DNA from: an uncultured Lachnoclostridium sp.
GTDB taxonomy: Bacteria; Bacillota; Clostridia; Lachnospirales; Lachnospiraceae
Direction of reading: 5' to 3'
DNA length: 64,000 nt
Assembly: GCA_930986645.1 (NCBI GenBank)
Contig: CAKNJS010000006.1
Span: 1 to 64,000, forward strand
This document shows, piece by piece, positions 3,911 to 18,084 of this stretch. Positions within the stretch are counted from its first letter, which is position 1; every line of letters starts with the position of its first letter. Below the pieces are notes generated by a model. It was not told the origin of the DNA. It was given only the letters and a program-made list of their open reading frames with translations, and did no database searches. The translations under genes and the position numbers were made by a program.

Positions 3911-4948
3911 TTATAAAACTCTGCTGATCTCTGTTTTCAGATTTACTGTATCGAAACCGGCGCTTTCAAACCACTCAAGGCAGATCTGGGCATATTCTTC
4001 CATCACACTTTTTACTTTCTTATCAGGTTTTTTGTCAAAACCCATATAAAGAATAAAAATCTGCATATACATTGTAAGATAAAATCGCAGATTTGCCTTT
4101 TTTTGTTCCTGTTCCATAATAAAGTTTGCAATCGTTCCGGCACTTATATAATCTCCGTCCGCAAGGCTTAAAAGCATTTTGGCAAACACCGCATCCGGAT
4201 CGCCGTACGTATATGCCAGCTCATCTATTGCCTTGACGGCGGTTTTCCGGTCATTCTTTTTGCCATAGGTTTCCACCTTCTTGCGCAGAATCATCTCCGG
4301 GAATGTTTCAAGGACCAGAGGCATTTTCTCAGCCTCTCTTAAATACTCTTCATTTTTTTCCTGCATTTCCAGCACGGCCAGACTGTCAAGCTGATACTGA
4401 AGATTATCTCTAAACTGTTCCGATATTTCTTTTAAATGATTCTCTATATCCTCATACTGCGCTTTCTCTGCCATGACCAGAAAGAGCAGATGATGCCCCT
4501 GATACTCTTCCGGGAATCTGTCCGCCATTCTGCGCGCCTCCCGTTCTGCCTTGAGCGTCATACCGTGCCTGAGATAAAATAATGCCTGCGCAGAGACAGT
4601 GAGTATCTGTTCATTTTGCTCTTTCGACGCACGGACAGCCTGCATATACAGTTTTTCGATGCTTTTGCAGTTTCCTGTTCCCTCTGAATCCCATATTCTG
4701 GCACAGGCTGCAGCCATATTCAGATACACGGCATATGTACTGTAACCTGCGGCCTGCGCTTCTTCATAATACTTGCGCGCCGTTTCATATTCTCCTGTAA
4801 ACAGTGCGATATTCCCCAGATCAAACGCCGCTCTTCCGTCCGTTTTGTCTTCCCTGACAATCTCTCCTAATATTACCGCAGCCCCATGGTAATCTCCCTG
4901 CCGGATCATAAGCTCTGCCTGTTCAATCCGTTCTTTTGGTTCGCTCAT
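3911..4948 (-). CDS. TPR-repeat protein, last gene of the T7SS-like operon
   Basis: TPR-like repeats (GDYHGAAVILGEI..., GEYETARKYYEEAQAAG); starts 23 nt after the preceding gene ends. Confidence 0.7.
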   Translation of the reverse strand: MSEPKERIEQAELMIRQGDYHGAAVILGEIVREDKTDGRAAFDLGNIALFTGEYETARKYYEEAQAAGYSTYAVYLNMAAACARIWDSEGTGNCKSIEKLYMQAVRASKEQNEQILTVSAQALFYLRHGMTLKAEREARRMADRFPEEYQGHHLLFLVMAEKAQYEDIENHLKEISEQFRDNLQYQLDSLAVLEMQEKNEEYLREAEKMPLVLETFPEMILRKKVETYGKKNDRKTAVKAIDELAYTYGDPDAVFAKMLLSLADGDYISAGTIANFIMEQEQKKANLRFYLTMYMQIFILYMGFDKKPDKKVKSVMEEYAQICLEWFESAGFDTVNLKTEISRVL

Positions 4949-4970
4949 ACACTCTCCCTGCCTTTATCTG

Positions 4971-6206
4971 TTAATTAACAGCAACATACTCCATATCGCC
5001 CAGATCCTTTATTGTATCCCATTTCTTCGCGGCAAAACCGCCCGCTGAACTTTTCTTAAACATTTCCCCGCCCACACTTTTCTCCGGGTCTGCCGCTGCC
5101 ATTCCATAGTCCAGCAGAGTATTAAAATTAGAATACAGATTCTTATTTTTTTCAAACCCCTTATACATGTCGTTATACCGTTTCCATTTGGCTTTTCTCA
5201 TGTATTTCGGGCGTTCCAGATCATCCGGTGTAAGCTTTGTCTCAAATCCCAATTCCGAACCGATTGTATGTACGATATTGCCTTTCGTAAAGTTTTCTTT
5301 CTTAAATGTATCTCTCAGCCCTTTTGCACCTTCATATACCTGATACATACTGTTTACATCATCCAGAACTCCGCTTCCCTCAGCCAGACCTCCATAGACT
5401 TTTTTCTCCCATGTACCGGATTGTGCAAGGCTTTCAAATTCTCCGGTCAGTCCGTCTCTTGAATTCAGAGATTCCGACTCTTCCAAGGCTTTCTCTCTTA
5501 CTTTATTCTTGTTTTTTCCCGACATGCTTCCGATTCCGAGTCCAAGGCCGACAGCAAAAAGTGCGGCCCCCTTCTGGCCGGTTGAAAACACCGAATTGAT
5601 CAAATCCCATTCAGCCGACAGAACTCCTGCGGGATTTCCTGAAAGAACGCTGCTTATCATCTTACCGGGCATGGCAAGTATATTTCCCGCGAACTCACCG
5701 AGAGCAGACACGCCTCCCCTCAAAGCCTCCATAGCGGCACGTTTCTCACTGTATGTCAGTTCTTTTTCATACGTCTCTGCCATCTTTCCCCGTACCGCTT
5801 CTATCTCTTTGTTAATCTCCTTACATGACTTACGGATCCCGGAGGCGGAAGTGATAGAGAATCCCGGATTAATCTGATCCCGCAGGATATGTACCTTGCT
5901 GATCCAGCTGTCCAGACCGGAAACAGCTTCTTCGAATTGTTCCTTATATTTTGAATCGACAGAATAGACATCTTCAAAAATCTGGTCAATTTCTTTCTTA
6001 GTCATGTTGTTCATATCAAGCATCTTTTTATGATAAGCGCCGATATTATCCATATAATTATTGATATCCAGTATCCCGATCCATCTGCTGAATCTTGTCC
6101 CCAGATCGCCCAGTCCATCGGTCAGCCAGCACAGTGTCTCGCTGTTTATCTCATCGATCTGCTTTTTTAACTTTTCTTTTCTCTCCTCTGAAAAATCACG
6201 TATCAT
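4971..6206 (-). CDS. 411-aa putative T7SS substrate/associated protein (helical N-terminus, Gly-rich hydrophobic centre)
   Basis: Start at MIRDFSEERKEKL behind RBS GGCGGGG; hydrophobic stretch GMGVS..GNILAMPGKMISSVLSG / GAALFAVGLGLGIGSM; position directly after the small WXG-type genes. Confidence 0.5.
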   Translation of the reverse strand: MIRDFSEERKEKLKKQIDEINSETLCWLTDGLGDLGTRFSRWIGILDINNYMDNIGAYHKKMLDMNNMTKKEIDQIFEDVYSVDSKYKEQFEEAVSGLDSWISKVHILRDQINPGFSITSASGIRKSCKEINKEIEAVRGKMAETYEKELTYSEKRAAMEALRGGVSALGEFAGNILAMPGKMISSVLSGNPAGVLSAEWDLINSVFSTGQKGAALFAVGLGLGIGSMSGKNKNKVREKALEESESLNSRDGLTGEFESLAQSGTWEKKVYGGLAEGSGVLDDVNSMYQVYEGAKGLRDTFKKENFTKGNIVHTIGSELGFETKLTPDDLERPKYMRKAKWKRYNDMYKGFEKNKNLYSNFNTLLDYGMAAADPEKSVGGEMFKKSSAGGFAAKKWDTIKDLGDMEYVAVN

Positions 6207-6222
6207 ACACTGTTCCCCGCCT

Positions 6223-16054: not shown

Positions 16055-17101
16055 TCACAGAAGCAGATAAGCCAGATTCTTCATGCCTTCACTTTTCTCC
16101 AGCTCTTCCAGTGTTACTCTGCCGGTGATTTTTCCGATATAAGCCGAGATGTGTCTCCCGCTGTTATTTTTCTTCTCGATGGCATTCTCCTGAGTCTGGT
16201 CATAGCAGCTGCATACAAACATATATTTTTCTTTATCGCTGCAGTCTATATTCTGCTCCAGAATTTTTGTCTTCTCTACGGATATTTCATCCTGACGCAT
16301 GATGATCAAAACACGGTCGCTCTGGGCAATCAAAGCCGAAACAGGCATACTGCACACATTCTCCGTATCCGCCACTATATAATCATAGTCACCGGATTCT
16401 TTTGCCTGTTCTGCCAGTTTTCTGTATGTCTCAGCAGATATCTGCAGCAGATCCGCCGCTGCCGGAAGCGGCGGCAGAAATGAAAATCCTCCTTCTGTAC
16501 GGATAAATCCCCTCACTGCTCCGTACAGATTCGCCCCTGCCTGACGCATCAGACGGCAGGCCTCAGTATCCAGACACACCCGGTCATTCAGATAATAATG
16601 GAAATACTGCATAGACTCGCAATTCAGATAAAGGACTCTCTTGCGGCGTTCCGCCAAAGATCTGCACAGTCCCAGAGAAACTGTCGTCACTCCCGCTCCT
16701 CCGGAAGCAGAACAAACTGTCACAATCTTTGGCTGACCGCTCAAATACCCTGATTCTGTTTTTTGAAGTTTCAGATCATAGGAAGATTCATTTACAATAT
16801 CTCTCAGGTTGGAATATTTATCCACATATACCGTTCCATTAATATGAGCAGACGATTTACTATCCTCGCCTAATATGACAATTCTGCCGATATCGTGTTT
16901 TTTCAACTCATCGGTATAAAGTTCCTCGCATACTGCCAGTACATCCGCCTCCTGCTGTGATGAAAAAAAGGATGCAAAATATACAGGATCTGTAATTACT
17001 TCCATTTCGATCTGAGAACCGAACCGTTCTATATATTTAATCTCCAGCGCTTCCAGATATCCGTAATCAGTATCCGCAAGAATAATAACCGGTTTTTTCA
17101 T
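16055..17101 (-). CDS. CpaE/TadZ-like MinD-superfamily ATPase with N-terminal receiver-like domain
   Basis: Receiver-like N-terminus, then KIVTVCSASGGAGVTTVSLGLCRSLAERRKRVLYLN (deviant Walker A lacking lysines); start at MKKPVIILADTD behind AGGAGGAG. Confidence 0.75.
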   Translation of the reverse strand: MKKPVIILADTDYGYLEALEIKYIERFGSQIEMEVITDPVYFASFFSSQQEADVLAVCEELYTDELKKHDIGRIVILGEDSKSSAHINGTVYVDKYSNLRDIVNESSYDLKLQKTESGYLSGQPKIVTVCSASGGAGVTTVSLGLCRSLAERRKRVLYLNCESMQYFHYYLNDRVCLDTEACRLMRQAGANLYGAVRGFIRTEGGFSFLPPLPAAADLLQISAETYRKLAEQAKESGDYDYIVADTENVCSMPVSALIAQSDRVLIIMRQDEISVEKTKILEQNIDCSDKEKYMFVCSCYDQTQENAIEKKNNSGRHISAYIGKITGRVTLEELEKSEGMKNLAYLLL

Positions 17102-17127
17102 AGGCATCTCTCCTCCTGACGTCCCTG

Positions 17128-18084
17128 TCATTCCTTAAATTCCACAAGAAAAGAACTATCTGCAAGCTTCAGAATATCTCCCTGATGCAGCAGACTCTGC
17201 TCACCTGCTTTGAGCATTATACCATTTATATATGTACCGTTGCGGCTCTGCATGTCCTCAGCATAATACTGCTCATTTCTGTGCCATATTGTGCAGTGTA
17301 CATTTCCCACCCGCAGGTTTCCGCTTATCTGTCCATCCGCACGATAAGGGCTTCTGCCGAGGATAAACTTTTCGTCCGTAATCGTAAATTCCAGATTCTG
17401 ATCCGCTCCCATATACCGCAGGTTCAGCTTCCGGCCGCTTTGCCGCAGTGCTTCCGGCTGCTTAACCATCTGTTCTTCTTTCAGATCATCCGTTCTGAGT
17501 TTTTCTTTCTGGAGATTTCTTGCATCCCGGAATCTTTTACCGATATCTTCAAGAGACCGGTCTGTCTCTTGAAGTGCAGATAAAAACTGAGCGATCTTCT
17601 TTCCCGGCGGACAAGAAATATGCCTGCTCCATTCCATAATCCTGTTTCGGAGCGCTGTGTCAAGCTCAAACCATTCTGTCCGTTCATATTCTTCACTGAG
17701 CGGGAGATAGACGAGATAAACTTCCTTTGTTATATGATCGATAAATATACTGTTATCTGTAAGATCCAGACAGCCCGCCCGGACGAATAAATTATCTTTA
17801 AGATTCATAACGGCACTGATAAGACCTGTCATGACCGCAATAAATTCCTCTTCGCCAAATGTAGAAAGTATTTTGGGCAAGCGCCTGTATTCACCGGAAA
17901 GATATACAAATTTCCGATATCCGTTAAACCTGATCTGGGTACACGGAAGAAAACTTCTGCAGCTGCCTGACTGGAGCATTTTATATCCGGTTTGGGAATA
18001 GAAGCGATCTTCTTTCAGAAGATACGACACATAGCCGTCCCCTTCCCTTTTTTCGATTATGCCGTTCTCTTTCATCGTTTCCAT
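17128..18084 (-). CDS. FHA-domain protein with DUF6382-like N-terminal domain
   Basis: C-terminal FHA (FILGRSPYRADG...VHCTI...DMQSRNGTYINGI...HQGDILKLADSSFLVEF). Confidence 0.88.
   Translation of the reverse strand: METMKENGIIEKREGDGYVSYLLKEDRFYSQTGYKMLQSGSCRSFLPCTQIRFNGYRKFVYLSGEYRRLPKILSTFGEEEFIAVMTGLISAVMNLKDNLFVRAGCLDLTDNSIFIDHITKEVYLVYLPLSEEYERTEWFELDTALRNRIMEWSRHISCPPGKKIAQFLSALQETDRSLEDIGKRFRDARNLQKEKLRTDDLKEEQMVKQPEALRQSGRKLNLRYMGADQNLEFTITDEKFILGRSPYRADGQISGNLRVGNVHCTIWHRNEQYYAEDMQSRNGTYINGIMLKAGEQSLLHQGDILKLADSSFLVEFKE

What the first reader, a model, noticed from the sequence alone, without database searches (positions are those of the whole stretch)
3911..18084. T7SS operon wired to a full Ser/Thr kinase, PP2C phosphatase and FHA circuit
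Seen: one minus-strand run of tightly spaced genes in the order FHA protein, CpaE/TadZ-like ATPase, transmembrane Ser/Thr kinase, PP2C, YukD, EssC, WXG100, YwqH-like, two small helical proteins, a 411-aa protein and a TPR protein. The kinase keeps HRDIKPEN, DFG and APE; the PP2C keeps DGMGG and GGRDN motifs. Known: EssC, YukD and WXG100 define Firmicutes T7SS; threonine phosphorylation by PpkA, PppA and Fha controls type VI secretion. Inference: this T7SS may be switched post-translationally by an analogous phospho-threonine pathway. It is the strongest candidate for a poorly described system in the window.
Basis: partly seen in the sequence, partly recalled or inferred. Interest (0 to 1): 0.9.

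Follow-up and report, generated by a model that had tools for sequence, protein, structure and literature searches.

The report
Kinase-equipped type VII secretion operon
This gut bacterium carries a recently described variant of a Gram-positive protein-secretion machine that has its own protein kinase and phosphatase, and the sequence evidence suggests that a docking step which is fixed in the textbook version has become one that phosphorylation could switch on and off.

Summary
One minus-strand operon (18084 to 3911) encodes a DUF6382-FHA protein (J), a TadZ-like ATPase (V), a transmembrane Ser/Thr kinase (D), PP2C (F), YukD, EssC, WXG100, a YwqH-like protein, two small helical proteins, a 411-aa substrate candidate and a TPR protein. 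This locus matches their T7SSf gene set (A,B,C,F,J,V), plus a kinase that T7SSf was reported to lack. EssC phylogeny puts it in a clade sister to classical T7SSb: 0/103 loci have EssB, 85 have V, 84 have J, 43 have a kinase nearby; in T7SSb none of 14 has J, V, kinase or PP2C. New here: (1) DUF6382 is predicted to be a pseudokinase related to EssB's; (2) the phosphothreonine-binding Arg is lost from EssC's FHA domains (1/100) but kept in J (77/93); (3) the kinase's juxtamembrane linker carries tandem E-x-T-[VI]-G-M repeats, unique in this genome and recurrent in relatives, which look like FHA docking sites. Best model: D plus J act as a split EssB joined by a phospho-switchable bond. Binding and secretion control are inferred, not shown.

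The parts
17128..18084 (-). J: DUF6382-FHA protein, 318 aa; read here as pseudokinase (about residues 10-160) plus FHA (241-307)
   Evidence: Pfam DUF6382 and FHA; AF2 model pLDDT 91.7; kinase-fold hits; profile match to EssB
17662..17991 (-). DUF6382 core of J (residues 32-141), EssB-like pseudokinase candidate
   Evidence: hhalign to the EssB N-terminal domain prob 79.6, E 1.5e-5; controls E >= 0.019
17164..17364 (-). FHA domain of J; keeps GR, H and SxNGT; the conserved Ser is Gly here
16055..17131 (-). V: TadZ/CpaE-like P-loop ATPase, 358 aa
   Evidence: AAA_31/CbiA; V present in 85 of 103 V-clade loci
13461..15998 (-). D: transmembrane Ser/Thr kinase, 845 aa
   Evidence: Pkinase 143 bits, DnaJ_C, TPR; intact catalytic motifs
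15117..15950 (-). kinase domain of D
14949..15041 (-). three tandem EEKTVGM repeats in the juxtamembrane linker of D, candidate phosphothreonine docking sites
   Evidence: only 3 matches of the degenerate pattern in the whole genome, all here; reversed control 0; recurrence in relatives
14685..14915 (-). DnaJ C-terminal-like domain of D
   Evidence: PF01556, 36 bits; also in P0001-P0005
14550..14606 (-). predicted transmembrane helix of D, about residues 465-483
   Evidence: hydropathy
14331..14489 (-). TPR repeats of D, predicted extracytoplasmic
   Evidence: PF13432/PF14559
12548..13429 (-). F: PP2C phosphatase (an upstream ATG at 13564 is possible)
   Evidence: PP2C_2 38 bits
12298..12564 (-). 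B: YukD/EsaB ubiquitin-like protein
   Evidence: PF08817, 35 bits
7772..12283 (-). C: EssC translocase ATPase, 1503 aa
   Evidence: TIGR03928, 1135 bits
11684..12283 (-). N-terminal region of EssC with two degenerate FHA domains (IGT, IGE)
   Evidence: Arg/Lys at the phosphothreonine position in 1 of 100 V-clade sequences
7386..7682 (-). A: WXG100 protein (EsxA-like)
   Evidence: PF06013, 34 bits
6830..7303 (-). YwqH-like helical protein
   Evidence: PF16888, 38 bits
6529..6828 (-). small helical protein o99, Lap-like partner candidate
   Evidence: recurs beside o411-type genes
6223..6501 (-). small helical protein o92, Lap-like partner candidate
   Evidence: recurs beside o411-type genes
4971..6206 (-). 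o411: candidate secreted substrate
   Evidence: N-terminal module shared with proteins that have other C-termini and with reverse-order lipases
5865..6206 (-). about 114-residue N-terminal targeting module of o411
   Evidence: blastp spans and alignment A3
3911..4948 (-). cytosolic TPR protein, 345 aa, accessory or chaperone candidate
   Evidence: TPR_14/TPR_19; follows o411 in several loci

Best explanation
This is a complete type VII secretion operon of the T7SSf kind (WXG100, YukD, EssC, PP2C, DUF6382-FHA, TadZ-like ATPase) that also carries a dedicated transmembrane kinase. SHOWN by sequence: EssC lies in a clade sister to classical T7SSb in which EssB was never found near EssC; the DUF6382 domain of J has a kinase-like predicted fold and is detectably related to the EssB pseudokinase; EssC's FHA domains in this clade have lost the phosphothreonine-binding Arg while J's FHA usually keeps it; and the kinase's cytoplasmic linker bears tandem E-x-T-[VI]-G-M repeats. 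INFERRED mechanism: D senses a cue through its variable outer domain and phosphorylates the Thr repeats in its own linker. J's FHA domain docks on them, and J's pseudokinase domain engages EssC's non-canonical FHA domains, as EssB's pseudokinase does in T7SSb. D (membrane anchor and outer helical domain) plus J (pseudokinase) thus act as a split EssB whose two halves are held together by a reversible phospho-bond, which PP2C F undoes. V positions the complex. WXG100, the Lap-like proteins and o411 are the cargo.
For: EssC family and gene set. No YukC/EssB in the genome, which is 89% complete. EssC tree: V clade 103 loci with V 85, J 84, kinase 43, PP2C 24, EssB 0; sister EssB clade 14 loci with EssB 12 and J, V, kinase, PP2C all 0. 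In the window's own subclade (support 1.0) the six loci with enough contig all carry the same kinase type, in three different positions (between V and B, upstream of J, downstream of the TPR gene), so linkage is kept despite rearrangement. DUF6382: profile match to the EssB N-terminal domain (prob 79.6, E 1.5e-5) and, in register, to the kinase domain (prob 42, E 2.6e-4), while unrelated families give E >= 0.019; a first, shallower comparison already gave E 2.4e-4; the model of J (pLDDT 91.7) hits mostly protein kinases in the viral structure library, where FHA proteins are few. Arg/Lys at the phosphothreonine position: EssC FHA2 1/100 in the V clade against 39/51 in the other, non-EssB clades; J 77/93. 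Linker motif: 133 T[VIT]G[MILV] sites in 114 homologue linkers against a shuffled mean of 2.1 (max 8), with Glu at -2 in 102 and Phe or Trp at +4 in 75; among 2523 genes of the T7SS loci only 6 carry two or more copies, all kinases.
Against: In the window's subclade the phosphate-contacting Ser of J's FHA is Gly, which could weaken phosphothreonine binding. About half of the V-clade loci show no kinase within the DNA held, so a local kinase is not essential to the core, although all six such genomes tested have kinases elsewhere. The Thr motif is not T7SS-specific: it occurs across a large kinase family, and such kinases also sit beside PP2C away from T7SS. K2- and K3-type kinases at other loci of the clade were not shown to carry the repeats. 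No interaction, phosphorylation or secretion data exist. The AF2 model of D is poor (pLDDT 46).
Confidence: 0.55

Rival explanations
1. Generic phospho-control as published for T7SSe and T7SSj: the kinase phosphorylates a T7SS component and the FHA domains of EssC itself read it.
For: Published proposal (PMC11217815). In other EssC clades the FHA2 Arg/Lys is kept in 39 of 51.
Against: In the V clade the Arg/Lys is present in 1 of 100 FHA2 and 0 of 97 FHA1 domains; the window has IGT and IGE.
Confidence: 0.12
2. The kinase and PP2C are a mobile signalling cassette that only sits beside the T7SS; their targets lie elsewhere and secretion does not depend on them.
For: Kinase-PP2C pairs of the same type occur away from T7SS; no kinase in the DNA held at about half the clade's loci; close relative L132 has three tandem kinases in the slot.
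Against: Kinases are linked at 42 of 83 well-covered V-clade loci and at 0 of 13 EssB loci; the genome has only three kinases; D lies inside the operon between V and PP2C/YukD/EssC; linkage persists when its position changes.
Confidence: 0.2
3. D is mainly a structural stand-in for EssB (kinase domain, one membrane helix, helical outer domain); its catalytic activity is incidental and J acts elsewhere.
For: Topology like EssB, as noted for TscD in PMC11217815; EssB absent.
Against: Catalytic residues are intact in nearly every linked kinase; outer domains are swapped freely between close relatives; D is not found at many loci that do carry J; profile similarity to EssB is better for J than for D.
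Confidence: 0.13

Closest known systems
T7SSf (Garrett, Higginson and Palmer 2024, PMC11217815)
   Same: Same core set: WXG100, YukD, EssC with N-terminal FHA domains, PP2C, DUF6382-FHA protein, TadZ-like ATPase; loci with exactly that set (L202, L204) fall in the same EssC clade as the window.
   Different: T7SSf was reported without a kinase and with a membrane-anchored J (two TM helices); here J has none and a transmembrane kinase is encoded between V and F.
T7SSj (same paper)
   Same: Kinase with a TPR-containing C-terminus, PP2C, DUF6382-FHA protein, YukD, EssC, WXG100.
   Different: T7SSj has TsjI and TsjK, not seen in this operon, and no V; its EssC is reported to keep the FHA phosphothreonine motif, lost here.
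T7SSb (Bacillus subtilis Yuk, Staphylococcus aureus Ess)
   Same: EssC, YukD and WXG100; EssC sister clade; EssC FHA domains mostly without the phosphothreonine Arg.
   Different: No EssB gene found near EssC in this clade; J, V, D and F instead.
T6SS PpkA-PppA-Fha threonine phosphorylation pathway
   Same: Kinase, PP2C and FHA reader beside a secretion machine; works-like analogy.
   Different: Unrelated secretion machine; analogy only.
Juxtamembrane phosphosites of the bacterial kinase StkP (PMC12077195)
   Same: Thr residues in the linker between kinase domain and membrane helix are phosphorylated; precedent for a functional linker.
   Different: StkP is a PASTA kinase of cell division; no tandem E-x-T-[VI]-G-M repeats are described in the passages read.

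Membership tests
Type VII secretion system | EssC/EccC ATPase plus WXG100 protein in one cluster | tested here: met
   TIGR03928 1135 bits; WXG100 34 bits
T7SSb | EssB/YukC | tested here: not met
   No PF10140 match in the genome (89% complete); EssB 0 of 103 in the clade
T7SSb | EssC inside the EssB-containing clade | tested here: not met
   Sister clade, V clade support 0.974, EssB clade support 1.0
T7SSf | Core set A, B, C (with FHA), F, J and V | tested here: met
T7SSf | EssC groups with T7SSf-type EssC | tested here: inconclusive
   Groups with loci of identical T7SSf gene set (L202, L204), but the published TsfC accessions were not in the tools
T7SSf | No kinase gene associated | tested here: not met
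   D at 13461-15998
T7SSf | J with two transmembrane helices | tested here: not met
   Window J has none; L202 and L204 have two
T7SSj | Kinase with TPR C-terminus, PP2C, J, A, B, C | tested here: met
T7SSj | TsjI (large Ig-like envelope protein) and TsjK | tested here: not met
   No such ORF among the operon genes; the rest of the genome was not searched for them
T7SSj | No TadZ-like V component | tested here: not met
   V at 16055-17131
T7SSj | EssC FHA keeps the phosphothreonine motif | tested here: not met
   IGT and IGE in the window
EssB-type pseudokinase (applied to DUF6382 of J) | Kinase-related sequence and fold without catalytic HRD and DFG | tested here: met
   HRD and DFG motifs absent from the A4 consensus
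EssB-type pseudokinase (applied to DUF6382 of J) | Binds the N-terminal FHA region of EssC | not testable with these tools
   needs a binding experiment
FHA phosphothreonine reader (J) | Arg, Ser, His and Asn of the binding loops | tested here: inconclusive
   Arg, His and Asn kept; Ser replaced by Gly in the window

The most novel reading that the evidence does not exclude
In this branch of the T7SS the fixed EssB protein (pseudokinase, membrane helix, outer helical domain in one chain) has been split in two. J carries the pseudokinase (DUF6382) fused to an FHA domain, and a true kinase D carries the membrane helix and outer sensor. The two halves are joined by phosphothreonine docking on tandem E-x-T-[VI]-G-M repeats, so that assembly of the secretion machine becomes a reversible phosphorylation switch.
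Probability: 0.4. Interest if true: 0.85.

Novelty: new variant of a known kind. Interest (0 to 1): 0.62.

Why it matters
Kinase-bearing T7SS variants were found by gene neighbourhood but had no mechanism, and DUF6382 had no assigned fold in the papers found. Reading DUF6382 as an EssB-type pseudokinase would explain why EssB is missing from these systems. The linker repeats give a precise, testable docking site. If right, a structural interface of the T7SSb machine has become a phospho-switch here. The systems occur in gut Lachnospiraceae and other Clostridia, including [Ruminococcus] torques ATCC 27756, whose locus has the same core with another kinase type.

Tried and rejected
(1) Chance cluster: rejected; the genome has 3 kinases and 2 FHA matches and the order recurs. 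(2) EssC FHA domains as phosphothreonine readers: rejected for this clade. (3) Kinases without an HRD motif at other loci as pseudokinases: rejected after alignment; they are HSD/HCD kinases with the catalytic Asp kept. (4) AlphaFold2 of D with 7 sequences: low confidence, not used for fold claims. (5) PDB fold search with J: the 50 matches shown are dominated by the FHA domain and say nothing about DUF6382; the viral library was used instead. (6) A first hhalign run used a wrong global-alignment setting and was repeated; the Kin-versus-TPR hit in that table probably reflects kinase sequences in the TPR set and was ignored. (8) A first motif regex counts overlapping starts; only the stricter T[VIT]G[MILV] counts are relied on.
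Full report
OBSERVATION. The finding is real. Pfam and NCBIfam confirm FHA/DUF6382 (J), an AAA_31 ATPase (V), a Pkinase-DnaJ_C-TPR protein (D), PP2C (F), YukD (B), EssC (C; TIGR03928 1135 bits, cut-off 778), WXG100 (A) and a YwqH-like protein. The genome (2.7 Mb, 95 contigs, 89% complete) has one WXG100, three Pkinase and two FHA matches, and no YukC/EssB.

WHAT IS ALREADY KNOWN. Garrett et al. 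2024 (PMC11217815) described T7SSc-T7SSj. T7SSe and T7SSj have kinase, PP2C and a DUF6382-FHA protein; T7SSf has WXG100, YukD, EssC, PP2C, a DUF6382-FHA protein with two TM helices and a TadZ-like ATPase, and no kinase. They proposed phospho-regulation with the T6SS analogy. A full-text search for T7SSf, T7SSj, DUF6382 or TsfJ returned no other relevant paper in the library.

NEIGHBOURHOOD TEST. EssC loci were collected from the same family, the class and named genomes, 181 in all, 175 non-redundant. An EssC tree gives an EssB-containing clade (14 loci; EssB 12; J, V, kinase and PP2C all 0) and a sister clade of 103 loci (support 0.974): V 85, J 84, kinase 43, PP2C 24, EssB 0. Among 83 members with at least 15 kb held, 42 have a kinase. 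These are lower bounds: extending one locus (L053 to L146) revealed a kinase further out, and all six genomes checked without a kinase in the DNA first held have kinases elsewhere, some on the same contig. Loci with exactly the published T7SSf set (L202, L204) lie inside the clade. The window's own subclade (L132, L051, L135, L140, L133, L134, L209) carries one kinase type wherever the contig is long enough, in three different positions. The nearest relative found is an uncultured chicken-gut Ruminococcus sp. (L132, 87% EssC identity), which has three tandem kinases in the slot.

J IS A PSEUDOKINASE-FHA PROTEIN. Profile comparison of the DUF6382 part of 125 J proteins with the N-terminal domain of 69 EssB proteins gives probability 79.6 and E 1.5e-5, and with 186 kinase domains probability 42 and E 2.6e-4 in the right register, ending at the loop aligned to HRDxKPENIF. 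EssB against kinases, a relationship established by crystal structures, scores lower (E 8.6e-4). Comparisons of J with V, PP2C, TPR and the EssB outer domain give E of 0.019 or worse. The AlphaFold2 model of J (44 sequences, pLDDT 91.7) matches mainly protein kinases in the viral structure library. The HRD and DFG motifs are absent from the DUF6382 consensus. This is a prediction; I did not search DUF6382 alone against PDB.

WHO READS PHOSPHOTHREONINE. At the key Arg position of FHA domains, EssC of the V clade has Arg/Lys in 0 of 97 (FHA1) and 1 of 100 (FHA2); EssC of the other clades has 39 of 51 (FHA2); J of the V clade has 77 of 93.

DOCKING REPEATS. The linker between the kinase domain and the membrane helix of D contains three copies of EEKTVGM. 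A degenerate DNA pattern for E-E-[KEQ]-T-[VIM]-G-M finds three sites in the whole genome, all here; the reversed control finds none. Relatives carry 3-5 copies of the same or a similar motif (L132 three kinases, L051, L135, L140), while the outer domains of the same proteins are mostly unrelated. L146 has a row of a different Thr motif, QETVFAG. Over 114 linkers of homologues there are 133 T[VIT]G[MILV] sites against a shuffled mean of 2.1, with Glu at -2 (102 of 133) and Phe or Trp at +4 (75 of 133). Phe/Trp at +4 is a family trend; the window has Asp there. A hydrophobic residue at +3 fits one known class of FHA ligands (established knowledge). Phosphorylated juxtamembrane Thr residues have precedent in StkP (PMC12077195).

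CARGO. The first ~114 residues of o411 recur at the N-terminus of proteins with different C-termini (L169, L184, L188, L143, L173 and others) and at the C-terminus of Mbeg1-like/lipase proteins (L130, L159, L197), or after a lipase domain (L180). That matches the targeting modules of polymorphic T7SS substrates and the reverse-order lipases mentioned in PMC11217815. o99 and o92 are therefore likely Lap-like partners. TPR345 follows o411 in several loci.

MODEL. D senses through its outer domain, phosphorylates its own linker, and J docks through its FHA domain; J's pseudokinase meets EssC's non-canonical FHA domains, as EssB does in T7SSb; F reverses the state; V positions the complex. D plus J is thus a split EssB. 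Gene content, phylogeny, motif statistics and predicted fold are shown; phosphorylation, both binding steps and control of secretion are inferred.

LIMITS. Genes were called by a simple ORF rule; named loci were chosen by similarity to the window's EssC; kinase and PP2C counts depend on flank length and on home-made profiles; no published TsfC or TsjC accession could be placed on the tree; the genome is a draft, so a missing EssB rests mainly on the 103-locus pattern.

VERDICT. New variant of a known kind: a T7SSf-type operon with a kinase, in Lachnospiraceae, with three new testable features (pseudokinase DUF6382, shift of the phosphothreonine reader from EssC to J, tandem docking repeats).

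Noticed in passing
L132:1322-8847: Three tandem kinases (886, 720 and 871 aa) stand where the window has one; all keep catalytic motifs and TVGM-type repeats, and their outer domains differ.
   Followed up: partly
L138, L143-L151, L165 and other V-clade loci: Many V-clade loci have a 1.2-2.5 kaa protein directly upstream of or near J; two such proteins scanned (L055, L106) carry bacterial Ig-like domains and may correspond to TsxI. The window operon has none.
   Followed up: partly
L052:8428-10077 and about six similar loci (cluster c18): About 500-aa FHA proteins, most with predicted membrane helices, sit at several loci of the clade; the one scanned has a trypsin-like domain.
   Followed up: no
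L233:7614-9881 (G058, no EssC in the DNA held): A kinase next to PP2C carries another repeated Thr motif, DPNMTVRMKR/DPNATVRMRR/DPDKTVRIRR, suggesting that Thr repeats in kinase linkers are a wider theme.
   Followed up: no
protein P0131: A 467-aa metagenomic protein joins a DUF6382 domain to a ParA-type ATPase domain, as if J and V were fused; it may be an assembly artefact.
   Followed up: no
window 2642-3874, minus strand: A PrsA/SurA-like foldase gene lies just downstream of the operon on the same strand; L132 has a 384-aa ORF at the same place.
   Followed up: no
L135:5561-7741: The Hespellia kinase appears to have a longer DnaJ C-terminal-like region after its Thr repeats than the window's D.
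   Followed up: no
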